Made by a program: the position numbers and the translations under genes
Part shown: in pieces, positions 3,986-57,619 of the stretch
Layout: the number at the start of each line of letters is the position of its first letter
Numbering within the stretch: the first letter of the stretch is position 1
NCBI RefSeq assembly: GCF_023343835.1
Contig: NC_064433.1
Location: 180,809,777-180,873,776 of the forward strand
Reading direction: 5' to 3'
DNA: 64,000 bases
From: Lagopus muta
Lineage: Eukaryota; Chordata; Aves; Galliformes; Phasianidae
The notes under the pieces: model-generated
The model's database searches: none
The model's input: the letters and a program-made list of their open reading frames with translations, nothing else
Told to the model about the DNA's origin: nothing

Positions 3986-4545
3986 GAGGGAGGTGATGTC
4001 TTCCTCTGCTCAGCTCTTGTGAGGCCCCAACTGCAGCACTGCGTCCAGGCCTGGGGCCCCCAGTACAAGAAAGACAGAAAGCTCCTGGAATGGATCCAGA
4101 GGAGGGCACTAAGATGATCAGAGGGCTGGAGCCCCTCTCCTATGAGGAAAGGTTGAGGGAACTCGGCTTGTTTAGCTTGGAAAAGTGAAGGCTCCAGGGC
4201 AACCTCACTGTGGCCTTCCAATAATTGAAGGAAGCGTATAAACAGGAGGGGCTGTTTACATGTGTTGATAGTGATAGGACAAGGGGGAATGGTTTTAAAC
4301 TAAGACAGGGGAGGTTTAGGTTAGATATTAGGAGGAAGTTTTTCACACAGAGGGTGGTGACACACTGGAACAGGTTGCCCAAGGAGGCTGTGGATGCCCC
4401 ATCCCTGCAGGCATTCAAGGCCAGGCTGGATGTGGCTCTGGGCAGCCTGGTCTGGTGGTTGGTGACCCTGCACATAGCAGGGGATTGAAACTAGATGATC
4501 AGTGTGGTCCTTTTCAACCCAGGCCATTCTATGATACTCTGTTTC
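3986..4545 (+). mobile_element. CR1 LINE 3' fragment
   Basis: End of ORF2 ([17 protein letters not shown] frame near 4013) plus 3' UTR and tail. Stops are present. Confidence 0.9.
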
Positions 4546-5068
4546 ATAGTAGCAGTGCAATTTTGAAGTCAGTCTCCTTCTCATCCCCACTTGCCATGCA
4601 TAGTTTCAGTCTGCAGAGCAGTTTGGGGCCACAGAAATTAGACTACTGGTGGAGGACAATCTGTCACAGCTGCCCACATACTGACAGAGATCAGGGTTCA
4701 AACTGAAGAATGGTCCTTTGGGTACTTTCTAATGATGTGGCCAGAGGAAAGCACTTCAGCACCAGAAATCAGTCCCAAGTCTCCTATTGAATGCTTTGCC
4801 TGTGGGTAGCTAAAAGCAGGGAGTTATAAAACAGATAAATTGAGCCATCTGGTAATGTTTCTATCAGCAATAGTTACAGAAATGCAATTATGCATGGGAT
4901 TGTGCTGGAATACGTTTGTGGTGTCCAAGGCAAGCATTTGATATCCATGTATAAGCCTCCATTTAATATTTTTTGCTTAGAAATTGCAAAATCATTCAGT
5001 TTTTCAGAAATATAACTGTAAAGTCTCTGGCAGGAGTAAATATCTAGAGTAACACAAGTGTTAAGCAG

Positions 5069-5329
5069 GTAAAACAAATTTGTGCAGGGAGAAGTCAGTG
5101 GAACTGAAGGCTAAGTGCATAGTCAGAGGTGTGGCTGTACCACAGAGTTGTCCTGCAGCTATCCAAAATCCTACAGCTTCATTTCAGGGCTGCACTTTGA
5201 CAGGTCACGTCACAAATTAAAGTCCTATGAATAATACGGAGCACCCTGTTGGTATCCAAGTGTTGCAATGTAAGCTGAATTCAGCAATCCTGCTGAAAAA
5301 ATCAAAGGATTGAGTTTAGTTTTACACAG
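5069..5329 (+). pseudogene. MMP20: MMP20 exon 2 remnant (prodomain and cysteine switch)
   Basis: The stretch follows an AG (5067-5068) and has about the length of an MMP exon 2 (261 bases; about 248 expected). Recognisable islands are CTACAG...GGGCTGCA...TGACAGG at 5171-5203, equivalent to the LQAFFGLQVTG segment; ATGAATAATACGGAGCACCC at 5228-5247; and a decayed cysteine-switch region at 5248-5275 (PRCGVPDVAN equivalent). The exon ends near 5329 in ACACAG, where AAGC replaces the donor GT. The frame is broken several times. The alignment is at nucleotide level with indels and was made by eye. Confidence 0.6.
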
Positions 5330-5560
5330 AAGCGAACACAGCTGAAGAGCAGTGATGAGCCAGAAACTGCATTCAAAACCTATCTGGGTTTCTGTATGTC
5401 CCTCCCACATTCCCCTGGCTGTTCCCTGCACCTCATGACAAGACAGCTAGAGACATGTAGCCATACCTGGTGTCCAGGGGACAGTGAAAACTGGCCCATA
5501 TCACTGTGATCATGCTCCAGAGACCATGACACGGGGTTCCTGACAGCAAAGCTTTTTTTT

Positions 5561-5621
5561 TCATAGAATCACAGAAACACCAAGGTTGGAAAAGACCTAC
5601 AAGATCATCCAGTCCAGCTTT
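5561..5621 (-). mobile_element. CR1 LINE 3' tail
   Basis: Reverse-strand tail (tcatagaatcacagaaacac...) lying in former MMP20 intron 2. Confidence 0.8.
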
Positions 5622-5904
5622 TTCCAGAAGCTCTGACTTCTGGATTCTCTGGCTTTGGAAATGAGTAGGCACTGTTTGGATGTTTTAAATGGGCCACTGG
5701 CATTTCTGAATTTATATCAATACTTCTCCTGTTTGTTACTCAAATCTTTTATCTTCATTGTGAATTTAGTCCAAAAAATCCATAGTGTGATTTTGCTGTA
5801 AGGTACTTGAAATTACAGAAAGGCTCTATTACAAAAAAAGGCAGTGTGCAAGTTCAGATGCAGGATTTTTCATCTGTTTTAGTGAGAAACACATGCTTGC
5901 TACG

Positions 5905-6055
5905 GTATCACCAAGTACACTGCAATATGTTATGAAGACTTTTGAAAATGCTTAAAAACATAGGCTGGATGTCACTAAACGAAATGCTGTTACTGCATGC
6001 TAATCAGTAGCATTTTCACCTGCTATCTCATTACAATTACACAACACCGCCGCTA
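5905..6055 (+). pseudogene. MMP20: MMP20 exon 3 remnant (start of catalytic domain)
   Basis: ATCACCAAGTACACT at 5908-5922 reads I-T-K-Y-T, matching the ISKYT start of the catalytic domain. TTTGAAAATGCTTA and GGCTGGATGTCACT at 5941-5976 then resemble the VEMAL and AW-V-P region. Stops interrupt the frame. The expected acceptor AG is replaced by ACGG at 5902-5905. The 3' half beyond about 5980 is barely alignable. Confidence 0.45.
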
Positions 6056-6889
6056 GATGTCACATTATAAAACACTTCATCTCCACAAATGCATGAATGC
6101 AGTTAACAGCTGAAGTAGAGGAAAGTATTGCACATCTAACTATTGACCTCTATCTTTCAGCAATAGAAATCTATTGGTCTTCCCTGAAGACTCCACTGTT
6201 ACAGCATAAGACTATAGGAAAGGCCTTGAAACCATGAAACCACCTCATTCCTTTGGGCTCTTACAATGTTTTTAAAGCATCTTTCAGAATGGATCGTGGT
6301 TCATGACAGGAGCGCTTAGGATTTATCACATGAGAAAGTGTTTGCAGAGTGCTTTTTGTTCACAATGCTCCAGTCTTAGCAATAAATTAATCTCCCTGAG
6401 CTGTTTTGCTTGTGACAGAAATTGGTTCATGATAACCCTGTCCTTATCTCAATCTATGAGCCTCTTTTTCCCTATATTTTCTCCCCCTGTTCTTCTGAGG
6501 ACAAGGAATGAGAGTGTGGCATGGTGGAGTTTAGCAACCCCTCAGTGTGAAACCACCACAGAGATCAGTTCTGAAGCATTTATCTGCTTGTAGTGTTAGA
6601 GGAAAAGGGTCCAGAAATATATGTGGATCATAATAGTCCCTTATCTATTGTTGAGTAAATTAAGCAGTGTCACAGAAGCATTAATCTATGCCATTACATT
6701 ATTACCTTGGTTCCTGGCACTGCTTTGCCCTGGACAAACTGATGTCTGGATATAATTCAAGAGTCGGTAAAGTTCATCCATGTTTCTCCAGAAGTAATCT
6801 GCATGTAGCTGCCCTGTACTAAAAGATAATGTTAGATAAGTGGAGAGTGTACAGCGATAGCCTGTGTTTGTATCTTGATGGCTTGCTGC

Positions 6890-7020
6890 ACTTGTGTGGA
6901 TAAGTACAATGTGCCTGAGCCTACCTTCTTGTTTATACCACCAGGTTTTGCTCCCACCTGATAAGCAGTCTGTAACTCACCTGGACCTTATACAATCCTT
7001 TCGCCTTCTCTGAAGTCCTG
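6890..7020 (+). pseudogene. MMP20: Possible MMP20 exon 4 remnant
   Basis: TTTTGCTCC at 6945-6953, ACTCACCTGGAC at 6974-6985 and a loose GATAAGTA...CCTGAGCC island near 6898-6922 fall in the order and spacing of the exon 4 segment [14 protein letters not shown]. The position between exons 3 and 5 is right, but identity is low and both splice sites are unconvincing. A competing stretch at 6161-6260 after TATCTTTCAG is equally weak. Confidence 0.22.
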
Positions 7021-7863
7021 GATTATAATAGCCTTTCTTTGGGAGGCTGGAAAGGAAGGCAAACCTGACTCTTGGAAGTCAGAGGTCCAACTTTAAAACC
7101 TTTTAAAAAATTGCAAAAGCTCATATTTTCTGTATATTCCATTCATACCTGGCTTTCTAAAAGCACATCCTCTCATTCTTCTTACCCCTTAGCTTGGTTA
7201 TGCCACTGAAATCTATTGCAGTGGGAGGTCTTGTTCAGTGCCCAATAATTCTTTGTCCTACCATTCCCTATAGATTGCATCTCTGTAAGGCAGAACTAAG
7301 AATAAAGTCTGCTACTGTGCCGCTTGTGCTCTGTTCAAAACAACCAACTCTGAACATACCCAAGACATCAGATAAGCTTCCTTCTGAAGAGCTTTCTGCC
7401 AAGTCTTAGGCTCTTAAAAAATCTGGTCTTTTTTCCAGTCTGTCCCTGTGCCCCAGCTTTCATCTGCCTGATTCCAGCAACATACAGATTGTTTCTTCTG
7501 AAGGATTTAGGAGCTCAATCCCACCTTGTTTCTCCAGTCCTCCAGTTTACCAGGCAGCCCCGACTCCCCTCTCAGATCATTGGCCCAAGTGAAAGCATCC
7601 CAGGGACAAAACAGATTTCAAGTATCTCTTCTGAGTTTCTGGGAATGATCACTAATTTTCATTTTCTCAGATATTTTAGCATTTGGGAAATGTTTAACTT
7701 TTCTAAAAGTCTGTGTAAACTCAGAATCCTGAACGCCAGCTGTTAAGTGGTAAGAAACAGAATTGTTTGCACGTGATGGAAATACAGGTGGGTTTTTTGT
7801 TATGGTGGCAGTTTTGCTGTTGGTTTTATTTTTGTTTGTCTTTTTGGTTTTTAGTTATTTAAG

Positions 7864-8027
7864 ATTTAATATTTTTCACTGTTGCTACTCATGAATTTGA
7901 ACACACTCCAGGCCTTGACCATTCCATTGGCCCCTCTGCTTTGATGTATCCTACTCACAAACAACAAGTCTCCATTTGAACTTTGTTTGCCAGAGGACAA
8001 TATGAAAGGCATCCAAGCATAATATAC
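7864..8027 (+). pseudogene. MMP20: MMP20 exon 5 remnant (zinc-binding box and Met-turn)
   Basis: This is the clearest relic. From 7878 the frame reads [15 protein letters not shown], which keeps the HExxHxxGxxH pattern (7890-7922), then PSALMYPT (Met-turn, 7932-7955). It ends at TGA 7977-7979. A second frame from 7975 reads [15 protein letters not shown] and ends at TAA 8020-8022, where KGIQALYG is expected. There is therefore an extra base near 7877, a net frameshift near 7974 and a nonsense change at the exon end. The stretch also aligns directly with MMP7 exon 5 at 45733-45894, sharing CTCATGAATTTG and TTGATGTATCCT-type blocks. It encodes PTHK where MMP7 has PLYS, which points to MMP20. 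Confidence 0.92.
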
Positions 8028-8104
8028 TATGTCCTATATGATGTGGTGTTGTGTGTGTGTGTATTTCTTAATAAGCAATCTGCTAAATATGAAATGAAGA
8101 GAAC

Positions 8105-8175
8105 TGCAGGAAGTTTCTGCCACTTTCGATGCTCCTATATTGCTGGGGAAAAAAAAATCTCCTCCTCAGAGCTGG
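8105..8175 (+). pseudogene. MMP20: MMP20 exon 6 remnant (first hemopexin blade)
   Basis: From 8116 the frame reads SATFDAPILLGKKKSPPQSW and then meets an intact donor, GTAAGG (8176-8181). The expected segment is SSFDA, then a few residues, LGK and a short tail, so FDA and LLGK sit correctly. The 5' part of the exon (hinge and PDLCD) and nearly all of intron 5 are missing: only about 80 bases separate this from exon 5. Confidence 0.65.
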
Positions 8176-8333
8176 GTAAGGTTACACCTATTATGTCATA
8201 CAACGTGTGATTTCAGAATCAATACATGTTTCCAGAGGTTTTGTGAAGTTCTCTTTGTTAGCTTTTGTTTGCTTGTTTTATACAGTTTCTCAGTGTTTTG
8301 TGTAGTTTCATTTTGCAATAGCTGAAACCTGAG

Positions 8334-8453
8334 TTTCTTTTCTGGCTATAAGCTTTTGGAAGATATGAAAACTGTATGTTTCATTAAGACTTTGTTGTCC
8401 AGTTATGATAAAGAAGATGGATGTTTTTATTCCCCCAGGCAGTTTTAACACAG
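8334..8453 (+). pseudogene. MMP20: MMP20 exon 7 remnant (hemopexin)
   Basis: After AG 8332-8333, TTTTCTGGC (8338-8346) matches the IFWR start. CATTAAGACTTTG...CCAGTTATG (8381-8408) matches the TITSSFPQLM region, and AAGATGGATGTTTTTAT (8414-8430) matches SNVDAAY. The segment ends GGCAGTTTTAACACAG before GT at 8454. Its length of 120 bases is near the expected 134 or so. Several indels and stops are present. Confidence 0.5.
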
Positions 8454-8849
8454 GTCTGAACGAAAGCCGGTCAAAAATGCATTCAGATCTGAGGGGAATC
8501 TCTGTCATCCAAGGATTCCAATACTGTGACCAAAAAGAAAAAAAAAAAGTTCTGAGAGATGATGGGATCTGAGCTATGGGACAGGTGAGCCCTTCTGATT
8601 ACAGAGTCCTTTGGGAACACATAGATCTGCTTAGTCCTGGAACCTCCAGAGCAGGCATTGCAGAGGTCGCAGAGGGTGAAGGAAAATGGGTGTCCTTTCT
8701 GCAAGAACACTGACCAAATTACCAAATTATCACTTCGAATGGGGCTGCAAATTGTTGCTTGGATCTTTTTAAGCCCTAGTGTACAGCAGAAACAACTGAG
8801 TCAGGCAGGATTTCATTGAGCAACACAAAAATCAGACCATATGACTGAG

Positions 8850-9330
8850 TGGGCTGCCCAAACGCTCCCTGAGCTCCGGCACTGGGGCCGTGCCCACCGC
8901 CCTGGGCAGCTGTTCCATGCCCACCGCCCTCTGGCGCAGCCCCTTTCCCTCACCCCCAGCCGCCCTCCCCTGACGCAGCTCCATGCCGTTCCCTGTCGCT
9001 GTCACTCAGAGCAGAGCTCAGCGCTGCCCTCCGCTCCCTGTGAGGAGCTGTAGCCGCCATCAGGCCTCCCCTCAGCCTGCTCTGCTCTGGGCTGAGCACA
9101 CCCAGGGGCCTCACCGCTCCTCACATGTCTTCCACTCCAGACCTTTCCCCATCTCTGTAGCCTTCATAAGCCCCTCTAATAGTTTTGTGTCATTTTTTGT
9201 GCTGTGGTGCCCAAAACCGCAGAAAGGACTCAAGGTCAGGCCGCACCAGTGCAGTGCAGAGCAGGACAGCCTGGCCAGCTGGCAGTGCTCAGCCTGATGC
9301 GCTCCGTGACAGGGTTGACCTTCCTGCGGC
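8850..9330 (-). mobile_element. CR1 LINE fragment, GC-rich
   Basis: GC-rich stretch with the CR1 phrases gtggtgcccaaaaccgcag and ggtcaggccgcaccagtgcag. It lies in former MMP20 intron 7. The left boundary is uncertain. Confidence 0.65.
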
Positions 9331-10683
9331 CTAGGCAGAAAAATCAATGATGTCATCAAAATGCATTTTCAAAATACCATAGTGCAGGAAAAACTGTTTC
9401 AGAAAATATAGAAAACTTTCTGAAATACAGTGTAATTACTTTTTATTTCATCTTCCCACCAGAAAACTGAAAAAGGCCCGAGATCTCAAAACTGGTTGCT
9501 GTATCTTCTGTGGCCTAGTCATTGCCTTTAGAAGGGAGAATTTAAAGAAGCAACAGCTTTTACTATAATTTGGTCTCTCATTCTGAGGCTCACAGAGGAG
9601 GTAGTGCCTGTGAAGATATCTGACTGACCAGAAGCAACATGCTTGTAGGCAGATTAATGCATTCATCAGTGCTGGGGGTGAGAGAAACCATAGGACTGAT
9701 ACGATGAGCTACAAAACTGAAGTGCATGAGACTGCTTTTCAGATGGAGACTAAAACCTAAGGCTCCTCTGTAGCAGGAAATCAAATATGCTTGGGACATG
9801 GAGGCCAACAAGTTTAAAATTGCTCATGCCCTTTTTAACTTTTTAACTTGCTCACTTTTTAACTTGCTCACTCTCCGAAGTAGGTTGGATACATCCAAAC
9901 CAGTTACTGAAAATACTCCTTGGCTCATGACATATCCTGAATAGTTCCTGAGAATCATTCATAAGGGTGAGATAAAATGGAACCACCCAGAAGCCACTCC
10001 AGCAACAAAGCAGTACAGACTTTGTGCCTGGGAATGCTTATATACTTCATATGGTTATGCTCTTTATGACATTTTAAAATACCATCCACAGCCTGAACAT
10101 CCACCCATCTCTCTCAGACTTCTGCTAGCATCAGGCTCACAGATTCCAGTCTGGCAGCTTCCAGTGAAGCCAAAACTAAATGCTTTATGTTCTTCTCTTT
10201 CCTTTTAATTTTATGACCATTTAATTAGTCCTCATTTAATTTCATTCTTGGCAGTCTGAGAATATAGATTACTTCAACTTCATCAGAGTGGCAGCTGTTG
10301 CAATCGTTTCACAAGAGACAACATAACAGTGTCTCATAGGAAGCCACAAGACCACAATAGAGAAGGAAAGATGTTATACAGCAGGATATGCTTTGGAGAC
10401 TGCTACTACTCATTCGAAACAGATGTGAAATGCATTGGTCTAGTGAAAGGATGAGCAGACACAAGATTACCTTAGAGAGCTGGCCCACTAAACTTACACA
10501 GAATATTTTTAGACATGCATACATTCACACGCAGATGAACATAAGCATATGTTCATAAGTATGTATGTGTATATATAAGAGCAGAGGCTCATCTATGAAT
10601 GCTTATATAGATATGTAAGTAGATATATATATGCAAACAAGTGTTGGATTCAACATGTTACTAAACATTTGAGGACGACTCAG
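9331..10683. other. Former MMP20 intron 7, right part
   Basis: No repeat family recognised. A small direct duplication (actttttaacttgctca-type unit, about 9831-9871) is present. Confidence 0.5.
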
Positions 10684-10858
10684 CCAACATACTTCTGAAG
10701 TGCATGGGTGTGTAGTGGTTGCAAATGAGAAAGTCACACTCAGTAGATACGTAATGGTTTGACTGTCTTCTGCTACTCGTCCTGTTACATGCAGCCTACA
10801 GTCTGATAGCTGTGGTCTTACTATGAGCAAGGCAGAAGTCATAGTTGCAGTAAATACA
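10684..10858 (+). pseudogene. MMP20: MMP20 exon 8 remnant (hemopexin)
   Basis: CAG precedes CCAACATACTTCTG (PHYW equivalent). GTGGTTGCAAATGAGAAAGTC (10714-10734) resembles the RGFQMQGP segment. ACATGCAGCCTACAGTCTGAT (10787-10807) resembles HVQQID, followed by AGCAAGGCAGAAGTC. Order and length fit exon 8, but the divergence is high and the match was made by eye only. Confidence 0.4.
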
Positions 10859-13210
10859 GCGCAGATTTCCTATGAACTTCTCTCAATGGATTCTCCACAG
10901 AGTGAAACTTTTTCCTACTTGCTGAGTGAAAGCTCTACAAAATTAGTCTTTTAGGTATGTTCCTCTCATATTACGTGTTCAGATTCTTGACATCCAAACC
11001 TGCTTCTGACAGTATGGGATATACTCATGCATGAGCTATTCTAGTGTTCTTCTTGCTAGTCTTATGGGACTAATGCAACTCTGGCAGATTTCCTGAATGT
11101 CATCGTTTCAAGGGAACATAAGGTAGTAGCTGACAAGGAAGTCACTGCTGTGGTAAGCCACTGAGCAAAGCAGTGCCATCTACAACACAGCAGGGAGCAC
11201 TGAGCAGTCCTTCTCAGAGAAGAGTTTTCATCTGTTTCTCAGAAATGTTCTTCTGAAGAATACAGACTCAGATGACCACAAAGGTACAGCCACTTAACAG
11301 CAGAAGTTCCTGCTGTTGATGAAGTTCTAGAGACACATTTGGCTTATTTTTTTTCAAAAGCCAGTTATTTGGGGGGGGGGGGGGGGAAGTAAAATAATTT
11401 AGGAAAGATAAAGTTCTATTGTCCTCTTGAAAGATGAACACAACTGTCCATAATATATAGGGAACTTAAATCATTGGATTTGGCCACTGGAATACAGAGA
11501 CAGCAGTGAGGATGAAAGTCTCTGAAGTTAGCTGTCACAGAATCACAGAATCACAGAACGGCCTGGGTTGGAAGACTGTCAGTTTATATGGATCAAATAG
11601 CTGGAAATAGAGAAACACCTGCAAGATGAGATTAAATTTAGTAATCACAACAGCAAATTAAACCAAATTCTACCTACTCCTAAGTTACCTTTTAGCCACA
11701 TAGTCTGGAATTTGCTAATTCATGGCAATATGCTAGTTTCCTGAGAGTCACTGGAATAATTCCGTACGAACTAGGACTTCAAGTGTTGTACATAGGTTCT
11801 AACTCTGTATGGATAAGTTATTTCTGCGGAGGAGAATACTTAGTGATGATAACAGAGCACTACTGAACACTAAGAGGAAGTAAATATATCAATATTTCTT
11901 AAGAAAGGAGTTATTTACTAGCATATCTGCATTTAGAAGATGCTATTCCATCACTTCTTTTCACCTCCTGCAACTCAGAGACTACAAACATCTCCAGTAG
12001 TTCTAATTTTCCATTCAAAAGGCCTTATAGTTGAGTAATTTTTTTAACAAGTGTGTCCAAACCTTCATGAAATACATCGAGTGATGAAGAATTTCCAAAC
12101 ATTAAACGAGGTGTTTCAGTATTTGAACTATTTTCTGCTAATGTGGATGGAAAGGTACAGCATCTTTAATAAAATCCAAGAACTTAGGGCTTTAGCTACC
12201 ATCAGTCAGACCCCAAAGCTATGCAGAAAAACCAATGCAGACTGCACTGATGTCACTTATGTCCCAAAGGAATATATCATCAGTTGCACCATACAGCACT
12301 TTTTTTTTCACTTGTGCTGAGCTGCAGCAGTGGCATCTTTTTCCTTTAAATTCATATTCAAGGACTGTATCTGCAACTGCAGTGCAAAGAAGCCAACGAT
12401 TTTGGTATAACATCTTTCCTTTCCTTATCATGAGCACCTCTTCTGCCTCGGTCACTCTTCATCTTCTCCAGGAAGACGTTCTGGAGGAATACGCACAGTC
12501 CTTACGCCCATCCAATCAATCCTGCATTTAAAATAGAATCAGTCATCCCTCAAATTTTCTGTTTTTCTTTGAGTAGAGGTGCAATTTTAAATACTTACAA
12601 TAGTTAAGGAAACAAAGAATAAAAATATCTTCAAATTGCTGAATGAAAGGAAAATCTCAGTGGAAAAAAAATGTTTTTATGTATTTGTCTGCCTAGACAA
12701 TTTTAATTATTTTTTTCATCTGTCCAATATATTGCAGTTTTTTTCTGTCTAAATAATTCTGTTTGCTTTTCAAAAGGAAATGAGAAAAATAAACAGTACT
12801 GAAAATTGCTGAAAGATGCAATTACTCCAAAACAAAATCTTTAACAAATCCACAACTTTTCCAAGAAAAATTTTCTGGGAAATTCTAGTCTATCTGTCTT
12901 ACAATCAGTTCACACTTACTAAGCTTATGAAATAAGGATGCAGAATGAATGCAGTATTATTACAGCTGTTCAAATGACTGAGCAAACACATTGATTCATT
13001 CTAAAGAAACCGCGTATGGAAAAACTGTAAAATCTTTAGAGGGGGTATTAAATTAATTTGACTTGGGGAATACAGAGCATGTGTATATTCTGGTACGGGC
13101 ATGGGTAATAAAATAAGTAAGAATGAAACAAAACCAGATGTCTGTGCTACTGTAGTTGTACTTAGCAAACTTGTTCAGCTGGACTCTGAGTTCTGATGAA
13201 GTCTAACATT
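10859..13210. other. Former MMP20 intron 8, left part
   Basis: Contains the G16 run at 11371-11386 and a 40-base CR1 tail stub at 11535-11575 (minus). The open frames near 12051-12531 have no recognised homology. Confidence 0.5.
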
Positions 13211-13695
13211 CACAGAATCACAGAATCACAGAATAGCTGAGGTTGGAAGGGACCTCTGGAGATCATCCAGTCCAACCTCCCTGCTCAAGAAGGGTTTATC
13301 TTTAGATATATATCTTATTATATCTTTAGATATATTATCTTATTATATCTTTAGAGGATATTATCCAGAATTGTGTCCAGGTGACTTTTAAATAACTTTA
13401 GGGAAGGAGGCTGCACAACCTCTCTGTGCGATCTGTGCCAATGCTCTGTCACCTTCACAGTATTTTTTTCTCTTGTTCAGATGGAACTTCCTGCACTTCA
13501 GCTTGTAACTGTTGCCTTATCACTGGACACCACTGAGAAGAGACCGGTCATCTGTTTGACAGTCTCCCATCAGATACGCGTAGTCACTGATCAGATCCCC
13601 CAAGTCTTTTGTTCTCCAGGTTGAACAAGCCCAGCTCCATAGGAGGAATGCTTCAGTTCCTCACTCATTTTAGTAGCCCTTCAAGTTCTACACTT
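13211..13695 (-). mobile_element. CR1 LINE fragment with internal tandem expansion
   Basis: The tail (cacagaatcacagaatcac...) is followed by CR1 3' UTR and ORF2 end in reverse. A unit like tatctttagatata is repeated three times at about 13297-13358, inside the element. Confidence 0.85.
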
Positions 13696-14535
13696 TTTAG
13701 TCACTAAAAGTCAGCAGCAGTCTTTACTGAATGCTCTAACTAATCACAGAGCCAGTCAGGGAATTGCAATAATGCAGCCATACTTAATGTCTAGTTTCCT
13801 GCAGAGTTTCACAGGGCTCAGGTCATTAGGAATAGCCACCCACAATCTATTCCTGGAGTTTCATTATCTTTGGCCATGCAACAGCACAGGTAGCATTTAA
13901 GATTTCAGTCTAATTTTCCATTTTATAGAGTTGACACTAGGACAATAACTTTAGAGAAAGAGACACTGCGTTGATTTCCAGTAGTCTTTTCCATCAGTCC
14001 TAGAAAAGTTCCATTATCCTGTATCTACTGTTTGTTACTTACAGTTTCTATAGCTTTTTAAAGATCAAGGCTACAGCCTTATAAATTTTCTCCTTTAACC
14101 AAATTTTTCACACATCTTTGTTCTGACCTGTGCCACCCATTATTTTTAAAGTATCAGAATGCATCCATAAAGACTATACCATGATGTCTGCATAATCCAA
14201 GTAAAACTGTCTTAAACTAATTGCAGTGATGATAACAGTTAGTTAGGCAAGCATAGCAGGTGTACTGGGAGTGCTCATGCTGTTCTGAGGGAGAGGCAGC
14301 AGAAAGAAAAAGGAGGAAGGAAGTATTTTTGTTGTCTTACTTTTCCTTGAACGCCACTGAAAAGAGCTGCCTTTGCCCACTTTCTGATATTCTGTATTCA
14401 AAGTTCTGTAACAAAGTTACAGTTAGTTATTGATTGCAGTGAAGAAATCTTGCCATCCCAAATATATTTTTAAATATGGGAGAAAATAGTGCTAACATGG
14501 GCCTATCTATAATACTCATAACAGAATTCTTCCAA

Positions 14536-14639
14536 ATCTATTATGAAAAGAAAAGGACAGAAAAAGACTATCCCAAGGGCATTGGGAAGGATTTTGTAGG
14601 AATCAATGGCAAAACACATGCAGCCCTGGAAGTGAATGG
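14536..14639 (+). pseudogene. MMP20: MMP20 exon 9 remnant (hemopexin)
   Basis: The frame reads IYYEKKRTEKDYPKGIGK, then DFVGINGKTHAALEVNG, with no stop. This is the MMP20 exon 9 segment (EKDYPK is shared), with one codon lost in the KKR-TEK region. The expected donor after NG is gone: the sequence continues GGGAGTATT rather than GGT(A/G)AG. No AG sits at the expected 5' boundary (CCAA instead of CCAG). The surrounding open frame 14476-14694 is therefore an exon plus intron read-through, not a gene. Confidence 0.85.
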
Positions 14640-16045
14640 GGAGTATTTAACTACACAGCATTTAGGGTTGATCCTGCCAGTCCACCCTCTGTGAGAGTGG
14701 AGAAGTCAATATAAACACAACATCTGCTTCAAAAAAAGCTTCTTTATTGTTTGATGAAGCTGAACAAGACTTCCTGTACAGCTGCTTTAACCAACACTCT
14801 GAAGGATATCAGTTCCGGATCTGAACTATGAAATCCCCTATTGATTTCAAATCCTAAGTTATAACTTGCATTTAAGTTAGCATTTTTCTTCATGTTAATT
14901 TTAAACTTAAGAAATTAAGAAATTCTTAACATTCTTGTCTTCAGTTTCCTGCTGAAAAACCCACAACACACAAAAATGATGAGGTTCCAATTAGGAAAAT
15001 ACTGTACACATTTGTATTATGCAAATGAAAAATAATCTCTTTAAAAGTGACTTGGAAATCTTACACAAAGTGTCCTCTTGCAGTCTCTGCCAGAGAGGAT
15101 GACTTTCTGTTGAAATATCCTGTCTCGATCCTGGGTGCTTTTCAGGATCAGAGCACCCCCATATGGACACAGCTGCCCCTTCACAAGGTCTCTGGCCCTT
15201 GTCAACCTTCTGAGTCTTCAAATGGGAAGTGACTTGCTGGGAGAAGCTGTGGATCCTGGGGGAAAAAGCAACATAAACTACTGGATTTTTAGGCATCTTG
15301 TTTGGTCAGCCTCTGTAGAGTCCTACTCCTCTCCAGAAAGAGGATGAAGAACCTGGACCCAAACACAGACCTTTACAGGAATATCTTTTAGATGAACGCC
15401 TACTTCAGAGTTCTTCATATTTTGATTCTTATTAGTATTTTGTAACCTAAAGATGAAGCATAGTAATATTCACAGTTCACCTCTCCTTGTAGACCTCTTA
15501 TTACCAGTACTAGTTACTTTATTACGTCCTGTTTTAAGGGCACAGCTGGAAACTTCCCTTCTAAAATTGGCCTCAAGCCTACCTAAACCTTAGTTTGTGC
15601 AATCCGAATGCAAAGTGGTTTTAAAATGCTGATCAATTCAAACTACAGAACTGAGTTGTGAAACTCATTCTTGTTCTCTGAGCGCAGAGCTGTTAAGCAC
15701 ACATTGCATAAATTTACAAAGCCCTTTTCTTAAATCCACTGTAATTATTCTTATTTTAATTGTATTATAGAGATTCTTATTAAAATTGATTGTGTTTGGA
15801 CCTTGAGTGTCATTTCAAATTTGGAAATCTGGTCACCCCCCAGCCTACACAGGCAGGACATCACAGGTACCTAGACCACAAGTAGATGTGCATTATGATC
15901 AGAATGAAAAACAATGTCTTCTGGTGTGCATCACGGAAACAGAAAAAAGAAAATAGAAGGAAGAACTCATCTTCAGTGCTTGAGCATGATTAGAGCAGGC
16001 CACAACCACATTTTGTTCAAGTCTGTCCTGTATCAAATCACAAAT

Positions 16046-16140
16046 TCCCCAGCTGTTGTTTCATATTTCTTCCTGACTGAAGCTATCTACCACTTCCCTG
16101 TGACACACCATTGCTTCAGCTTTTGGAACAGCAATTTCTC
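16046..16140 (+). pseudogene. MMP20: Possible MMP20 exon 10 remnant (C-terminus)
   Basis: After CCCCAG (16041-16046) the frame reads VVSYFFLTEAIYHF and ends near SFWNS. Terminal MMP exons begin with a YFF-G-x-Y-K-Y motif and end near a Trp and the last Cys. Only the YFF, Y and W positions match. Position (1.4 kb after exon 9) and phase are plausible. The call is tentative. Confidence 0.3.
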
Positions 16141-17266
16141 CTCCACGTTAACTTTTCCACCTGTTAGCTTACAATTAGTTTGTCTGCTCAGTCTGATTTT
16201 CCCTTTCTAAAAACAAGCATCCCTGATGCATCCACACAACAAAACAGTGGTTTGGGGCCACTACGTTTTCTTGAGGATATGCATATGTTGCTAACACTCA
16301 GTAACATGAGCTAAATTTTACAGTTTTGTAATCAGTGTATCAAAGTGCATTTTATGTTACCCAACAGGGCTGGATGCCAACAGCGTCATTTTGTTTAACA
16401 CCAAAATACAAAGATGAGCAATGTGATAGAGGGAACAGTAACACAAGGCTAATGTTTGTGAACTCAAGGATGTAAAGCTGAAAGTAAACATTATGTGAAG
16501 AGGAAACCACGAAGGGTGCCAAACTCTGCAAATCACTCCTAATACATACCTTTTGATGCCTGCATTCACAAGTAAAGGAGTGTCCTTTCTCAGACCCAGC
16601 TCTGGAAACACTCAAACATGGGGAAAACTGTTTCCTCAGAACGGTCTTGTTGGTTTCCCAGAAAGTGCGTACGTGCTTGAAGTCAAGTGCATACAAATGA
16701 CTGAAGAACCAGAATCTTCTTTTAAAAAACTGTCTTGAATTTTCCTTTGCTCATGGCGCTGTTAATCATATGCAGTGCTGCTGAAAATGAAATAAAACTG
16801 CTAGAAGTGGCTCGGAGAATAAAACCCAACTCAGGAAGGATAAATTTCAGTGGACATAAATCTGGAATATAACCACTGTGGTTGTTTCTCAAGACCATGG
16901 ATCCTCTTGCACTGCATCTCAGGCTGTAAACACATCCCACCTTATTTGACATGAGAGACAACCTCCACCTATACTGGCTGCTGTGCAAAGTCAGCAGGAA
17001 TTTTTCATTAATAAAATATTTTCCATCTTAAAAAATTTCATAAGGATTAAAACTGTCTTTGACTGAAATCCCTGTCAAAGCTGTCACTGGCTTTAAGAAA
17101 ACATGGTAATTCCTTGCTCTAGCTGAGATTCAAGATTCCATGACGGTCAGTGGCAGATTCTTGGAGAAAAAAAAGTACAAGACAAAATATGTGAACCATA
17201 GTCATTGTCCTGGAAAATAACTTTAGTGTTTGACTAAGTACTTGCATTCATGATTTCATTCATTTT
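16141..17266. other. Unassigned intergenic sequence
   Basis: No recognised gene or repeat. Open frames on both strands near 16350-16740 show no family motif. Confidence 0.45.
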
Positions 17267-39899: not shown

Positions 39900-40702
39900 T
39901 TCACAAAGACAACTTAGCAACTCTTGATATACATCAACTCCATTTTTGGCCACATTCAGGTTAGCCAGAATCCAGCTGAGTATCATGAAACAAATGACCA
40001 TGAAACAAAGATCATTCACCACTGAATCATTCAGTTTTACTTCCTTTTTTCATCCCACTGCAGAGCACAAAACTGCCCATGTCCAAAGGAGACTCAGGTC
40101 TTGATAGCTGTATCTATTTTTTTCCCTAGACCAGAAGGACCCTGATGCTCATCAAAAGGCTCTTCAAAGGACATAGTTTCATGTAGTGTCCTTGTTCACA
40201 GCAGTTACTCGCCTCAAAAAAAGACAGGGTGTAAGTGTTTCAATAGCATTATTCCAAACCTCCCCAATTGATTTTTATACATCATGGTGCACTTCCATTT
40301 TCACTGTGTGGACAGTTCGTGTAGCCAGTATTTCTTCCAACCTCCTTGAACTTCCTACCTCCACTCACTGTCACAAGCATAGGTTCTCTGCTGAATGTAA
40401 ATGCTGTGACTATGATGATAGGGCAGGAAATGGTTTTTCCCAACCCACAACATTTTTTCTAATTTAAAATGAAGGTAAAAAGACAACATGTAAAATTCAC
40501 ACAGACACACCATAGAATTAACATCAATTTCTTTTTTATATTGATCTTATTAGTATCAGATTTATTTCCAATGATTTTGAGTCCCCCCAAAATGACTTCA
40601 TTTTCATTGAAAGATCTTTGTTTCGATTTTAGTCCCATGTTCACTGAAATCTTCTCTTTTTTTTTGAAACAAAAGGAAAAAAGAAGTCTTAGTGATAGGT
40701 GG
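39900..40702. other. Unassigned sequence
   Basis: Nothing recognised. Confidence 0.4.
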
Positions 40703-42112: not shown

Positions 42113-42191
42113 GCATCTTAGCTCTGGTCTTGGGAGACAGAAAGCCTAACACTTTCTGCAGCAGTGAGGCTCTTTGGCAATGCTGGTCACC

Positions 42192-46472
<4,281 letters not shown>

Positions 46473-46616
46473 AGAAGGTGTTTCAAAAAAAGCTAAGAAT
46501 TCAGATCTGGTAGTTTTGGTGTTCCAAAACCATTCAAATGCTCTGGCTAATTACACATCTAAGCATCACCTTGAACTTTTCATGATCTGTTTACACGTTA
46601 TCCAATTTCATGTGAC

Positions 46617-46622
46617 AATAAA
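46617..46622 (+). other. MMP7: MMP7 polyadenylation signal AATAAA
   Basis: AATAAA lies 145 bases after the stop codon and is followed by a GT/T-rich stretch (about 46640-46692) suited to be the downstream element. The inferred 3' UTR is about 165 bases. A second AATAAA at 46381-46386 lies inside intron 5. Confidence 0.75.
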
Positions 46623-46639
46623 AAAATCAAACATCTTGT

Positions 46640-47789
46640 ATACTTTGTTGACTAATGCTTGTTGTTTGTTGTGTTGTGTTTTTTTTTTTCCTTCTGGCAT
46701 TTCAATGGTGTATTGAAGAACTTCTACAGATATATTAGACAGAAAAATATTCTCCTGAATAGAAGTGTGGGTACCAAAAAGAGCCTGTGTGCAACTACTG
46801 CTGGATTTACAAGCCCTCTTCATGGTTCCAGTTCCCAAACATGTCCCATCCCTTCTCAGTCTCTGCTACTGACTCCTCAGAATCACAGCGTGCTTACTGT
46901 ATGGCTCACATAAATCCAAGCACAGTGTTTCCAGAGCCCTGGGACCACCTTCTCTCTGCTGGAGCCATTGTCCTGGGGCACCTGAGCTGCTCTGTGCTGC
47001 AGGGTGGGCCTATCTTCCTGCCATAACTGAAGGGCTCAAATGACACAGGGAGATGCATCAACATCTCTCAAATCCCAGGACAAAATGGCCACGGCTCCCC
47101 AGCTCCTTGAGCACTACCTGAGAAATCTCCAAGTCTCCACTGGGCTCAGTCATAAGATGAGATGGGAAGGGTTCTATAAGTACAGCTTTGCAGGCAGGCA
47201 CTGATGTACAAATACTTGAGATTTTCTTCCTCCATTCATCAGGTTAAAATGGTACAAGACAAAAACTCTTTCCACTAGGAGTTCTTGTGTTCCCTCTTGT
47301 GGAGAAAATGCTGCTTCTACTTCAGCACCTTTGCAAAATGACAGATTTCCCAGCATTTCTCCAAAAGTAATGGATGAAGTAGATTGCTGAGACATCTAGA
47401 GTGTCAAGATGATATAAACATAGGGTGTGAAGCATTCTCCTTGAGGTGCTTTTCCCTCAGAGAAGTTTCTCAGATCTGTTAAGTCAAAAGTTTGAAAGCA
47501 CTCCTATCAGTTACCAGACATTTCTTATATCTGAAACTCAAAGATGAAGTATCTGGGACTATTTGGACATTATCCTGATGGCACAGATCTCAATGTAAGA
47601 GAAAAACAGAAAGTCCCAGAAGGTCAGGTCCCAGACTGCGTAAAAGACTGCAGAAAGGAACTGGTGAGCTCCACAGCCTCTGGGGATGCTTGACCAACTT
47701 AGTTAAGCTGTGTCTCAGGAAAACCAGCTGTATCTCAGTGGATCCAATGCTGTTTCACTGATACCAAAGGGGAAAAAAAGGAACTATGT
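46640..47789. other. MMP7 3' flank
   Basis: No gene recognised. There is a GT/T-rich start (about 46640-46692) and then unique-looking sequence. Confidence 0.4.
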
Positions 47790-48305
47790 TGGTTGCTCTA
47801 AAAGTAATGACTCCTATTTATTTACAGAGAAACTACTACAGATACGGAGAGCGCAGTAACATTATTTGATAGAGCAAATGCTCAGCTACAAAAGAATATT
47901 TTGCAACATGGTCACCACAATTAGCTATAATTTTCATAAGTGGTGAACCAGAGCTTGCATGTCACGCTTGTAAAAATCTTCATGGCCATCACAATGTAGC
48001 TTGTCTTTCATGTCACTGTCACCAGTGCTGAAACACATCACCCACTGCATCACTGTGCTCACACCCAGTGCTTGGTATCCAAAACATTCAAGGCATCAAA
48101 GAATGTCAGTGGGTGCAATTTTCACCACATGGAAGAATTCAGTGATACACCTTTGCTTCAAAGGCACTTCCATGTACTTCCATGCACACTGCCCCTCTGC
48201 TGCCATCTATCACACAGCCACACAGTGTAATGCAATTGCCATACCACCATCTGCCTCTGACCATCAAGGGTCAACATCATAATGTAGGAGGCATTACTGG
48301 CACAC
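47790..48305 (-). mobile_element. Internally deleted mariner (Galluhop-like)
   Basis: The left end, ggttgctctaaaagtaatga, is a mariner TIR; a decayed partner, taggaggcattac, is at 48284-48296. On the minus strand the N-terminal transposase region (about 48175-47985) is joined directly to the C-terminal MQALVHH region (about 47980-47940). Roughly 600-700 bases present in the 33.5-34.5 kb copy are missing between them. Confidence 0.8.
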
Positions 48306-48309
48306 TTGG

Positions 48310-48860
48310 TCTTCTTAAATCCAGCTGACAACTGAACCCATGCCAGTGGAGAAGTGGGTCTCTGTCTCCTCCTGTATTGTGGAGGGTTTATTCTGCTCCA
48401 CATCGCAGACTTTGAGGTCAAGGTACCTCAAGGTACCCTGAGGATAACTGGTCTGACTATTAAAGACAGACATAAAGAAGGCACTGAGAACTTCAGCCTT
48501 TTCCTTATCCTCAGTGGTCATATTTCCCACCACATCCAGAAAATGATGGACATTCTTCTTAGTCCCCTTCTTGTTTTCCCAGAGTCTCAGCAAAAGCTCC
48601 ATGTTCATCCACATCTCATCCTCTAGCTCATCTTATAGCACTCAGGGACAGCCTGCTCCTGCACCTTCAAGTCTTCCTACTTGAGGAGCATCCAGCCTTC
48701 CTCGTCCCCTTCACCTTTCAGGATGAATTTTCTTCTAAAGTAGAGACTTTAGGAGCAGCTGTCCTCTGGGCCCCACTGAGGTGAGCCACATAAGGCTTCC
48801 ACGCTGTCAAAACAGCCCTAGCCACTTCTTCTCACACACCATCATCACACAGGAAGAAAG
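48310..48860 (-). mobile_element. CR1 LINE ORF2 fragment between endonuclease and RT
   Basis: Reverse frame reads TEDKEKAEVLSAFFMSVFNS (about 48512-48453), a phrase from the CR1 ORF2 linker. This is a more 5' part of CR1 than the other copies here, and its tail is absent. Confidence 0.8.
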
Positions 48861-49126
48861 ATGAACACTGTATTCATAACTCCTTCCAAAGGCAGCATGG
48901 CAGATTGCATGGCTGAATAGAAAGATTAGTTAAAAAATCTTTCCAGCTGAAGAAAAGAGGAATGCTTGAAGAAAGAAATGGCCATCACAGTGGATAGTGA
49001 CTGAGGGATCCTGAAAAGGTTTGATGCAGACAGAAAGTAGCCCATTCTCTTGGCCAAGGTTGCACAGGAAATATAGAGATAAATCATGCCCTTTGTTGAT
49101 CTCAACCTGATCCTGGATGCTTCAAA
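48861..49126. other. Unassigned, possibly more CR1
   Basis: Continues from the CR1 ORF2 fragment without a clear border. Confidence 0.3.
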
Positions 49127-49180
49127 TAGAATGGAATGGAATGGAATGGAATGGAATGGAATGGAATGGAATGGAATGGT
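49127..49180 (+). repeat. (GGAAT)n pentamer microsatellite
   Basis: About ten near-perfect AATGG units directly abutting the tail of a minus-strand CR1. Confidence 0.95.
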
Positions 49181-49690
49181 TCATTTAGATAGAATCTTCG
49201 AAGATCAGTGAGTCCAACTTCCCAATAACTTTAGGACTAACCAAAATTTAAAGCACATTAATGAGGACATTGTACAAATGCCTCTCGATCAACCACAGGC
49301 GCAGGCAATCAACTACCTCTCTAGGAAGCCTGTTCCAGTGTTTAACTATCTTCACAGTAAAGAAATGTTTCCTAATGGCCAGCCCTCCCCTGGCACAGCT
49401 CTGTATCATTCCCATCCTGCCATCAGTTCCACGAGCAGAGCTCAGCACCTGCTTCCACTCCTCAGGGAGCTGCATAGAGCAGTGAGATCTTGGCCTCCTC
49501 CAGATTGGACAATCCAGGTGTCCTCTTCACAGGATGTGTGATCCAGACCTGTCATCAGCTTTGTTGCCCTCTTCTAGATGCTTTCAAGTATATTAACATG
49601 CTTCTTATATTGTGGGGCCCAGAACTGTATGCAATAGTCAAGATGAGACTGCACAAATGCTAAATACAGTGGGAGGATCACCTGTTTTGA
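49181..49690 (-). mobile_element. CR1 LINE 3' fragment
   Basis: Reverse 3' UTR and ORF2 end ([20 protein letters not shown] frame near 49390-49320). It differs in tail sequence from its neighbours, so it is a different subfamily. Confidence 0.88.
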
Positions 49691-50842
49691 GCAGAAAAGG
49701 AGAAAACAGTCATGGGAGACAGAGTTCATCAGAGGAAATTGTGCAAGATGCTAGAAAGAGTCATTCCTAAGGTCTCATGGGACAATCCATGTACCATACT
49801 GGAGGAACCACTGTACTGACAAAGGAGGAAGGCATGAGAACAAAGACTTGACTGAAAATAGATGTTTTCTAGTGTGCAGTTACTTTCCATATGAACTGAG
49901 ATGAAAAACTCAGAGGTATATTCTTAGGAAGACCATCCTGATCATAGGACACATCTGAAGATCTCTTCCAGCAAGCACACAATCTGTCTGCCCTGCATCA
50001 GGGCCAGCACAAGGTGGGAGTGAGCACTCTTTTATCTCCAAGGAGGAATCGCTGCAAGAAGCAGGAATTCACATCTAGCACATCTACAGCATCTGAAATC
50101 CAGTAAGAACCAGGATCTTCTGCCTCAGAGATGGCAAAGGCAACACTTACTAAGCAGCCAGCGGCATCTCATTGCCTGCCAAGCTCTTGTTGTGGTTCCC
50201 TTAACGTAACAGGACATCTGCTTTGGGGAACACAGCTGTCGGTGGCTCACCTCACATTCGGTCTGCTCCTCATCCTGTCTGTTAGATCGAACAGTACAAT
50301 ATCTGCCTCCACCTAGTGGTACAGTTCAGCAAACTCTGTACTGATTTACACCCTGTTGTACAGTGCATCTAGCCATCCCACATGCCCACAGAAGTTACAG
50401 TACAATTCATTATTAAAAGGAAAATCAGAGAGAAGAACAATTTAACAAGGGACTGCTGCCTCTTCCTTCTTCATTTTGTTCTACTGCGTAAGTTTTCACA
50501 TGATTTCCTGAGGACATGATACTCCTGAGGACATGGAAGTTCATTAGGTTATTTAAATATTATCTGCTCCTTCCTCTGCCGTACAGAAAAAGATATGGGT
50601 AATTACATAAGATTTTGTGTCAGTAGGGGTTTGAAGTTTCATTTGCCTGCAATACTGTTCTGTTAAATACATAAAAAGATATCTAAATGCAGCTTTGCAC
50701 TACAATGAGCAGCAAATTAAGTCTGCGTTTGGAGAGCAAAGTATTTACAATTAACATGGGTCCTTTGACTATCCACATACAAAAGATAAGCCTTACTCCT
50801 GTAAAAATGTTCCTATCCTAGAGACTATTACTGAGCCTTTAC
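49691..50842. other. Unassigned sequence
   Basis: Nothing recognised. Confidence 0.4.
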
Positions 50843-51900
50843 ACAGAATCACAGAATCACACAATTACAGAAATGTAGGGGTTGAAAGGGACTCTAAAGG
50901 CCATTGAGTCTAAACCCCTTGCTAATGCAGGTTCCCTGCAGCAGGTCACACTGGTAGGCATCCAGGTGGGACTTGAATATCTCCAGAGATAGAAAGTCCA
51001 CAGTCTTTCTAGACAGCCTGTTCCAGTGCTCTGTCACTCTAACACGAAAGACGTTCTTCCTTGTGTTTGTAAGGAACATCTTGTGTTCCAGTTTCTGCCT
51101 TTGCCCCTTATTCTTTTTTAAGCACTGGAATAGGCTCCCCAGGGAGGTGGTTGAGTCACCATCCCAGAATGTGTTTAAAAACCAATGTGATGCTCAGGGA
51201 CAAGATTTAGTGGAGGGCTGTTAGTTAGGATAGTATGGTTAGGTTGTGGTTTAAAGTCTTGTTCAACCTGAGTCATTCTATGATTCTGTTATTTTATTGC
51301 TACCTGTCACCAAAAAGAGTCTGCCCCCATCGATTTGACTCGCACACTTTATATATTTATGATCAGAAATCAGGTCACCTCTCAGTCTCTATTCTCCAGG
51401 CTCAACAGTCCCAGCTCTCAGCCTTTCCTCATACAGAAGATGCTCCAAGCAGCCAGTCATCTTTGTGGCCCTCTGCTGGACTCTCTCTGGGAGTTTCCTG
51501 TCTGTTTTGAACTGAGGAGTCCAGCATTGGACACAGTGCTCCAGACACACCAGAGCAGAGTAGAGGGGGAGGATCACCTCCCTCGACCTGCTGGCCACGC
51601 TCTTTTTAATGCACCCCAGGATGCCATTGGCTCTCTTGGCCACAAGGGCACACTGCTGGCTCATGGCCAACCTGTCGTCCACCAGGACACCCAGGTCCTT
51701 CTCCACAGAGCTCTTTTCCAGCAGGTCACACCCTAGGCTATACTGGTGCATACAGTTATTCCTCCCCAGTTGTAAGACTCTGAACTTGTCCTTGCTGAAC
51801 TCCATCCACCCAACTCATCAGCCTGTCCTGGTCCTGCTGAATAGCAGCACAGCCTTCTGATGTGTTCGCCACTCCTTCCAGCTTCATATCAGCATCGTTA
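50843..51900 (-). mobile_element. CR1 LINE, split by a nested CR1
   Basis: Two reverse-strand halves, 50843-51114 and 51297-51900, belong to one CR1: the first stops at tttgcccctta and the second resumes at acctgtcaccaaaaagagtctg. The second half encodes a 138-codon ORF2 tail (51805-51389). Confidence 0.88.
51115..51296 (+). mobile_element. CR1 LINE 3' end nested inside another CR1
   Basis: Plus-strand ORF2 end ([11 protein letters not shown] frame) and tail (gagtcattctatgattctg) inserted into the minus-strand CR1. Confidence 0.85.
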
Positions 51901-52958
51901 CCCACTGCTTCAGGTAAACTGAATCTAATTCATCAAATGCAGGGTGATGTTCTGAGAGAGCAAAGTTGATACGCTTGTGATAGAAATGACATGCAGAGAA
52001 AATGTAAGAAAAAATAACTTAGATTCACACTGCATATAAAAAAAGGATAAAAAGAATCAAATTGTTCTTACTCCTTAATTTGTCCCCAAAAATTAAACAG
52101 TATTTACGGCCTTTTGCTAATTCAGAGGAGCCATGGGGGGGTAGAGGGGGAGATGAAAGAAAATGATAAAAGATTCAGGAATTCTCTTTATTTTATAATC
52201 TGAGTATTTAAAGTTCACAAGGATCAAATACTGCTTGAAGAAATTCCTGAAGGGGAAGAAAGAAGACCACCAACAAAGAAATATTATATAAGTCAGTGGA
52301 ACCCACTCATTCACAAATTACAAAGCCATAAGCCATTTTTCTGCGACGGTAAAATTATTAATACTTAAGATTTGAGAGGTCTTGCTGTCATTCTCTCTCA
52401 TTCCTTTTGTCTAAAAGCTCATAGTCAGATAGTTCCCAGCCCAGTCACTTCTCAGCCAAGATAATGCTGCATGTGCCACTCCTACAGCCTCCACCAAGAA
52501 CCGTATCTCCATAGGGATGTCCAGATCTCCAGATGTGCACCTGGCTTTGTTAGCATTGAAATGATTTCCCCTCACCTCTTCCTTTTTTTTTGAAGCAGTA
52601 TATAAGTGAAGTCTCTGCAATCACTTGGCAGAGAACAGGAAGCAGAGCAGAAGCTGCTACCCAAACGGTCTCTCACTACTGTGATAGTTAATAAAGCCTC
52701 TGCCTGATCTGTCTTAAACTGTATTTGTGTCACTTTTCTGTGCTGTACTAAGTCCAGCCATTCATTTGTTTGGCTCTTTTTTTTCCCTCTCTACAGGAAA
52801 TATCCTTACATCTAATCTGCTTTTTCCAAGCTTCTTTGCAATCTGCTCAAATGCTCTTACACTTCTTTTACCAGCCTATTTTGCCAGCCCAGTTCTCCCT
52901 GTCTTCATCTATTTAACAACAGTCTACTGCATTCCTTCCTGAATAGTTCTCCATTTTC
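51901..52958. other. Unassigned sequence
   Basis: Nothing recognised. Confidence 0.4.
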
Positions 52959-55581: not shown

Positions 55582-55760
55582 TCACAGAATTAAAGAGTCA
55601 CAGAGTGGTTTAGGTTGGAAAGTAACTCTGGGTCCATCTGGTCCAACACCTGCTCAAGCACGTACATTCAGAGTAGGGTGACCAGAATCATGTCAAATCC
55701 TTTTCAGAATCAGTGTCCCACCACACAAAGCCAACACCACCCTCCTCTAAAGGTCATATC
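55582..55760 (-). mobile_element. CR1 LINE 3' tail
   Basis: gtcacagaattaaagagtcacagag... diverged reverse tail. Confidence 0.8.
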
Positions 55761-57462: not shown

Positions 57463-57600
57463 ACAGAATCATAGAACTGCTCAGGTTGGAAAGGACCTTA
57501 AGGATCATCAAGTCCAACTGCAACCTAACCATACTACCCTAACTCTAACAACCCTCCCCGAACTCATGCCCCTGAGCACCACATCCAAATGGTTATCTAT
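57463..57600 (-). mobile_element. CR1 LINE 3' tail, left arm of a head-to-head pair
   Basis: tcacagaatcatagaactgctcagg... reverse tail. Confidence 0.85.
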
Positions 57601-57619
57601 TGGGATTATGGAAACATTT

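What the first reader, a model, noticed from the sequence alone, without database searches (positions are those of the whole stretch)
5069..14640. A collinear MMP20 (enamelysin) relic next to intact MMP7
Seven exon-sized islands in the correct order and strand match MMP20 exons 2, 3, 5, 6, 7, 8 and 9. They carry frameshifts, stops and lost splice sites. In mammals MMP20 is the 5' neighbour of MMP7, and its known job is processing enamel matrix. Loss fits a toothless bird, and published comparative work has reported inactivated tooth genes including MMP20 in birds. The exon-by-exon map here, and the contrast with the intact paralogue 28 kb away, is what deserves checking.
Basis: partly seen in the sequence, partly recalled or inferred. 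Interest (0 to 1): 0.85.

Follow-up and report, generated by a model that had tools for sequence, protein, structure and literature searches.

The report
Bird enamel-protease gene, decayed in place
The DNA next to an intact bird MMP7 gene holds the broken leftovers of MMP20, an enamel-building enzyme gene that toothless birds no longer need; this kind of relic in birds has been reported before.

Summary
The core of the finding holds. On the + strand, in correct order, four stretches match MMP20 exons 2 (5431-5544), 5 (7865-8025), 7 (11248-11353) and 9 (14539-14640) far above chance. Exon 6 (8110-8176) is weak: 21.6 bits, while an out-of-order chance match reaches 25.7. The islands carry four in-frame stops and six frame-changing indels. 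Similarity starts near 5431, not 5069. Crocodile MMP20 scores highest of 188 MMP proteins over the five islands, and a tree puts the relic beside it. The assembly shows the order MMP27 (probable) - relic - MMP7, all + strand, and nothing like an intact MMP20 elsewhere. MMP7 is intact. Simulations suggest the missing exons were deleted, not just blurred. This is a unitary pseudogene, most likely left after tooth loss. A syntenic MMP20 pseudogene in chicken was published in 2010 (PMC2865498), so the phenomenon is known. No other bird's DNA could be compared, so shared lesions and timing were not tested.

The parts
5431..5544 (+). MMP20 exon 2 relic, 3' half: 37 codons aligned, 13 identical to crocodile; stops TAG 5458-5460 and TGA 5527-5529; -1 and +1 nt indels; cysteine-switch region PRCGVPD reads P*HGVPD
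   Evidence: 35.1 bits, Gumbel p 4.3e-6
5560..5616 (.). repeat piece (up to 5 other matches in the window; CR1-like, name recalled) starting 16 nt after the last readable exon-2 codon; the rest of exon 2 is not found beyond it (10.9 bits)
7865..8025 (+). MMP20 exon 5 relic (zinc-site exon): 53 codons aligned, 35 identical to crocodile; HEFGHALGLGH reads [11 protein letters not shown]; two +1 nt frameshifts (near 7871 and 7968), stop TAA 8020-8022; no GT donor at the inferred exon end (reads CT)
   Evidence: 118.3 bits
8110..8176 (+). possible MMP20 exon 6 relic (weak): 21 codons aligned, 8 identical; net +1 nt indel near 8155; donor-like GTAAGG begins at 8176
   Evidence: 21.6 bits, p 0.026; against: out-of-order match of 25.7 bits
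11248..11353 (+). MMP20 exon 7 relic: 35 codons aligned, 18 identical; stop TGA 11254-11256 in place of W; net -26 nt near 11311; acceptor-like AG 5 nt upstream; no GT donor at the inferred end
   Evidence: 46.9 bits, p 7e-10
14539..14640 (+). MMP20 exon 9 relic: 34 codons aligned, 21 identical; in-frame -3 nt; no GT donor at the inferred end (AATG|GGGAGT)
   Evidence: 68.4 bits
42180..42299 (+). MMP7 coding exon 1, intact
42824..43047 (+). MMP7 exon 2, intact (PRCGIPD)
43154..43302 (+). MMP7 exon 3, intact
45096..45221 (+). MMP7 exon 4, intact
45733..45894 (+). MMP7 exon 5, intact ([11 protein letters not shown])
46450..46472 (+). MMP7 last coding exon; TGA stop at 46470-46472 read (one search printed the exon to 46470)

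Best explanation
The interval is a unitary pseudogene of MMP20 (enamelysin), left at its ancestral place between MMP27 and MMP7. The only well-established job of MMP20 is processing enamel matrix (established knowledge), so once bird ancestors lost teeth, selection on the gene lapsed. It then decayed by point mutations, small indels and the loss of whole exons (1, 3, 4, 8, 10), and a repeat now lies at the broken edge of exon 2. It can make no normal MMP20. Shown here: identity, order, lesions, place, and no intact-looking MMP20 elsewhere in the assembly. Inferred: the link to tooth loss, and that the absent exons were deleted.
For: Four exons far above background, same strand, right order. 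Four in-frame stops and six frame-changing indels over five islands; without exon 6, four stops and five such indels. Crocodile MMP20 best of 188 MMPs. Tree: relic with crocodile MMP20 (96/78), inside tetrapod MMP20 (99/94), on a long branch of 1.05. Order MMP1/18-like, probable MMP27, relic, MMP7, all + strand. Of 48 places matched in the 1.03 Gb assembly none exceeds 68% identity to crocodile MMP20, below the 73% between crocodile and human MMP20. Positive control: the same scan finds paralogous exons in the neighbouring MMP27-like gene and in MMP7. Chicken syntenic MMP20 pseudogene in print.
Against: Decay is uneven: exon 5 is somewhat better kept than a uniform neutral decay of 0.2 changes per site would give (10.5% of 200 simulations reach its score), while exon 2 is far worse kept (35.1 bits against a simulated mean of 135.5; all 200 simulations score at least 35.1). 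The relic's tree place rests on a long branch. No bird or crocodile genomic DNA was available to date the loss. Assembly error was not tested with reads.
Confidence: 0.95

Rival explanations
1. The islands are a relic of a tandem duplicate of another MMP of the cluster (MMP27, MMP1/13-like, stromelysin-like or MMP7), not of MMP20.
For: MMPs of this cluster share exon structure (established knowledge); exon 2 alone scores nearly as well with other MMPs (best MMP20 38.2, best other 33.4 bits).
Against: Exon 5: best MMP20 114.7 against 94.0 for the best other. Exon 7: 42.8 against 29.6 (the latter P0079, named MMP20a of Latimeria). Exon 9: 68.1 against 58.6, the latter from P0100, whose C-terminal half reads as MMP20. 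Exon 6: 25.9 against 18.4 ('other' = 140 proteins under 55% identity to crocodile MMP20, those lacking an exon not scored). Tree places relic in MMP20. No clean avian MMP27, and only listed hits of two searches, were among the 188.
Confidence: 0.03
2. Only exons 5 and 9 are real; the other islands are chance.
For: Exons 3, 6 and 8 are weak or absent; plain tblastn finds only exons 5 and 9 clearly.
Against: Exon 7 (p 7e-10) and exon 2 (p 4e-6) are not reached by any control segment, bin or shuffle.
Confidence: 0.05
3. The surviving stretches are kept because they now do something else, such as a regulatory element or non-coding RNA inside old exons.
For: Exons 5 and 9 are much better kept than the other exons; 10.5% and 27% of neutral simulations at d 0.2 reach their scores.
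Against: Scores are compatible with neutral decay at d 0.15 (35.5% and 57.5%); stop and frameshifts in exon 5 and changes at the zinc site; no Rfam match at gathering thresholds.
Confidence: 0.04

Closest known systems
MMP20 pseudogene of chicken at the syntenic locus (zebra finch degradome paper 2010, PMC2865498)
   Same: Bird, pseudogene resembling MMP20 in the syntenic place, linked to absent teeth (passages seen)
   Different: The passages seen give no exon map; the paper finds no such relic in zebra finch and its table lists MMP-7 as absent in two of four species (the two birds, by my reading of the column order), whereas this window has an intact MMP7
MMP20 pseudogenes of turtles (PMC4054807) and of pangolins, anteaters, aardvark and echidna (PMC12906968)
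   Same: Decay of MMP20 after loss of teeth or enamel; echidna keeps only exons 9 and 10, a similar exon-wise loss (passages seen)
   Different: Independent losses in other lineages
Meredith et al. [quoted passage not shown]
   Same: Reported tooth-gene inactivation across birds, MMP20 among them (content recalled; seen only as a citation)
   Different: Paper not held; whether it includes this species or this exon map was not seen

Membership tests
MMP20 (enamelysin) unitary pseudogene | Sequence closer to MMP20 than to any other MMP | tested here: met
   crocodile MMP20 first of 188 proteins; tree 96/78 with crocodile MMP20; no clean avian MMP27 in the set
MMP20 (enamelysin) unitary pseudogene | Ancestral place beside MMP7, with MMP27 on the other side, same strand | tested here: met
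   the MMP27 name rests on exons 2-7, while exons 8-10 match stromelysin- or MMP18-named proteins best
MMP20 (enamelysin) unitary pseudogene | Exons in order with intron spacing (not a processed copy) | tested here: met
   exons 2, 5, 7, 9 spread over 9.2 kb
MMP20 (enamelysin) unitary pseudogene | Inactivating lesions | tested here: met
   four stops, six frame-changing indels over five islands; no GT donor at the inferred ends of exons 5, 7, 9
MMP20 (enamelysin) unitary pseudogene | No functional copy elsewhere in the genome | tested here: met
   48 places matched in the assembly, none above 68% identity (counts are lower bounds by the tool's note)
MMP20 (enamelysin) unitary pseudogene | All ten exons traceable | tested here: not met
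   exons 1, 3, 4, 8, 10 not above background, exon 6 weak; not required of a relic
Shared ancestral inactivation in birds | Same lesions in several bird orders | not testable with these tools
   no bird DNA collection; one search states that G000 has no relatives here
MMP7 (matrilysin) | Intact six-exon gene without hemopexin domain, cysteine switch and HExxHxxGxxH | tested here: met

The most novel reading that the evidence does not exclude
The catalytic exon 5 and exon 9 have outlasted the rest of the gene because selection kept them for a non-coding role after teeth were lost, or because MMP20 died later in this lineage than in birds at large.
Probability: 0.05. Interest if true: 0.5.

Novelty: already known. 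Interest (0 to 1): 0.28.

Why it matters
It is a clean example of a gene decaying after the trait it serves is lost, beside an intact sister gene that serves as a control. It adds a tested exon map that separates well-supported exons from chance ones, and it suggests that whole-exon deletion, not only point decay, shaped the relic.

Tried and rejected
Plain tblastn with human MMP20 found only exons 5 and 9 clearly. A first frameshift scan scored with BLOSUM gave an exon 4 hit on the exon 2 island (41.4 against a maximum of 38.0 in 12 shuffles); the codon-mutation model gives exon 4 only 11.8 bits there, so I rejected it. That scan's exon 3 hit at 13206-13289 lies in a repeat. Eye-picked candidates for exon 3 (6732-6764, with a GT at 6766) and exon 8 (13800-13862) scored 14.1 and 11.3 bits and were dropped. 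Exon 1 was also sought between the probable MMP27 and window position 5430: 16.7 bits, no hit. An exact DNA pattern from exon 5 found nothing in viral contigs. Rfam: no match.

Full report
What was checked. The finding claims seven exon-sized MMP20 islands at 5069-14640, in order and broken, 28 kb from an intact MMP7. I tested presence, chance, paralogue identity, genome context and prior reports.

Origin. MMP7 translated from the window is 94% identical to a matrilysin cluster named for Cyrtonyx montezumae, 92% to an unnamed cluster, and 86% to Alectura, so the window is from a galliform bird (inferred). It lies at C1:180809777-180873776 of a 1,026,658,476-base assembly whose C1 is 194.9 Mb long.

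MMP7. Six coding exons at 42180-46472 join into 267 residues with GT/AG at all five introns, PRCGIPD and [11 protein letters not shown] (stop codon read). It is intact.

Presence and chance. With plain tblastn and human MMP20, exon 5 (E 5e-10, two pieces together) and exon 9 (1e-6) stand out, and both score lower with MMP13 or MMP1. I then wrote a model that scores each codon by its chance of arising from MMP20 residues under neutral mutation, with indels of any length cheap, using eight MMP20 proteins weighted to crocodile. Each exon was searched in the interval that collinearity allows and compared with 97,960 nt of control DNA (16501-42100 and 46601-64000 on both strands, and the reverse strand of 4541-16500) and with 60 dinucleotide shuffles (9-kb shuffles for exons 5 and 9). 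Exon 2: 35.1 bits; exon 5: 118.3; exon 7: 46.9; exon 9: 68.4; none was reached in any control or shuffle. Exon 6: 21.6 bits; 0 of 27 control segments (which left out segment tails), 1 of 984 bins and 2 of 60 shuffles reach it. The bin is very likely a match at 40333-40438 on the + strand that scores 25.7, more than the island. A GTAAGG donor-like site begins at 8176, so exon 6 stays possible but unproven. Exon 3: 19.9 (3 of 41 segments, 6 of 60 shuffles). Exons 1, 4, 8, 10: at background (11 of 16, 30 of 41, 21 of 29 and 5 of 16 segments reach them). As a positive control, the same MMP20 profiles find exons 2-6, 8, 9 and 10 of the probable MMP27 neighbour and exons 2-5 of MMP7; MMP27 exon 7 and MMP7 exon 1 are missed and MMP27 exon 1 is weak (21.9 bits).

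Lesions. Exon 2: two stops, -1 and +1 nt, and the cysteine-switch motif destroyed. Exon 5: two +1 frameshifts and a stop; HEFGHALGLGH reads [11 protein letters not shown], so the three zinc histidines remain. Exon 6, if real: +1. Exon 7: TGG to TGA and a net loss of 26 nt. Exon 9: -3 nt. That is four stops and six frame-changing indels, five without exon 6. No GT stands at the inferred 3' ends of exons 5, 7 and 9; these ends rest on MMP family structure as I recall it. In exon 5, 15 of the 16 codon changes reachable by one base can be transitions; in exons 9, 7 and 2 the shares are 4 of 9, 4 of 13 and 6 of 18, so transition bias is not a general rule here. A repeat piece with up to five other matches in the window begins 16 nt after the readable part of exon 2, and the missing 3' end of exon 2 is not found beyond it (10.9 bits).

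Which MMP. 188 sequences (184 of the 341 fetched proteins, those of 400-520 aa, plus window MMP7, human MMP20, MMP1 and a partial MMP13) were scored on the five islands. Crocodile MMP20 is first (278.9). Of the top 45, 41 are named MMP20 and four are unnamed. Alectura MMP10 scores 164.5, human MMP13 (no exon 2) 149.3, human MMP1 133.7, window MMP7 (exons 2 and 5 only) 77.2. The pool comes from the listed hits of two searches, so it holds no clean avian MMP27. Per island, MMP20 beats the best of the others at exons 5, 6, 7 and 9, but only narrowly at exon 2. In a 42-row tree on 179 columns the relic pairs with crocodile MMP20 (96/78) inside tetrapod MMP20 (99/94); the MMP20 group as a whole has only 71/67 support, and the relic branch is long, so the tool calls its place unsure.

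Context. The 20 kb before the window hold an MMP1/18-like gene (180790556-180795504) and then a gene at 180800509-180806973 whose exons 2-7 match MMP27-named proteins best and whose exons 8-10 match stromelysin- or MMP18-named ones best, both + strand; I call it probable MMP27. So the order is MMP27, relic, MMP7. Mammals have MMP20 beside MMP7 (PMC12906968, passage, which names MMP8 on the other side; MMP27 recalled). In the assembly crocodile MMP20 matches 48 places; other MMPs give better E-values than the relic, but none exceeds 68% identity; relic exon 5 is among the 48, the other relic exons are not.

Why exons are missing. The joint best decay distance is 0.2 changes per site, but single islands differ (exons 2 and 6 best near 0.35, exons 5 and 7 at 0.15, exon 9 at 0.1). 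At distances up to 0.3, simulated exons 1, 3, 4, 8 and 10 fall below 20 bits in at most 6.5% of 200 runs each. At 0.4 to 0.5 detection drops, to 50-72% of 100 runs for these exons at 0.5. Blurring alone therefore explains their absence only if they decayed much faster than exons 5 and 9; deletion is inferred. Exons 5 and 9 are at the well-kept end: 10.5% and 27% of simulations at 0.2 reach them, 35.5% and 57.5% at 0.15. The indel rate and mutation bias in these simulations are my assumptions.

Prior reports. PMC2865498 (passages) reports a pseudogene resembling MMP20 at the syntenic chicken locus, not found in zebra finch. PMC4799876 (passages) states that MMP20 was pseudogenized in birds, citing Kawasaki and Suzuki 2011. 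PMC3562159 (passages) covers enamel matrix genes of five birds. Meredith 2014 was seen only as a citation. PMC2542379 does not hold the terms MMP20 or enamelysin. Literature searches. I did not find an exon-by-exon map in the passages seen, but the 2014 paper and all supplements were not readable, so I do not claim the map is new.

Verdict. A real, correctly named unitary pseudogene; four of the seven claimed exons stand firmly, one is possible, two are not supported. The biology is known, hence low interest.

Noticed in passing
42180-46472: The table of PMC2865498 lists MMP-7 as absent in two of four species, the birds by my reading of the columns, but this bird has an intact MMP7 and most of the 120 best hits listed are bird proteins named MMP7 or matrilysin.
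   Followed up: partly
P0100 (protein): A Notechis protein named MMP27-like has a C-terminal half that reads as MMP20: probably a fused gene model across two neighbouring genes.
   Followed up: no
4003-4541, 5560-5616, 9056-9252, 11523-11576, 13197-13293, 13597-13638: Stretches shared with other parts of the window, several CR1-like by recalled motif; one causes a false exon 3 match.
   Followed up: partly
59042-59441: Long low-complexity A/T-rich tandem tract that gives overlapping open frames on the minus strand.
   Followed up: no
40333-40438: A chance-level match to MMP20 exon 6 (25.7 bits, + strand, out of order) that outscores the exon 6 island.
   Followed up: partly
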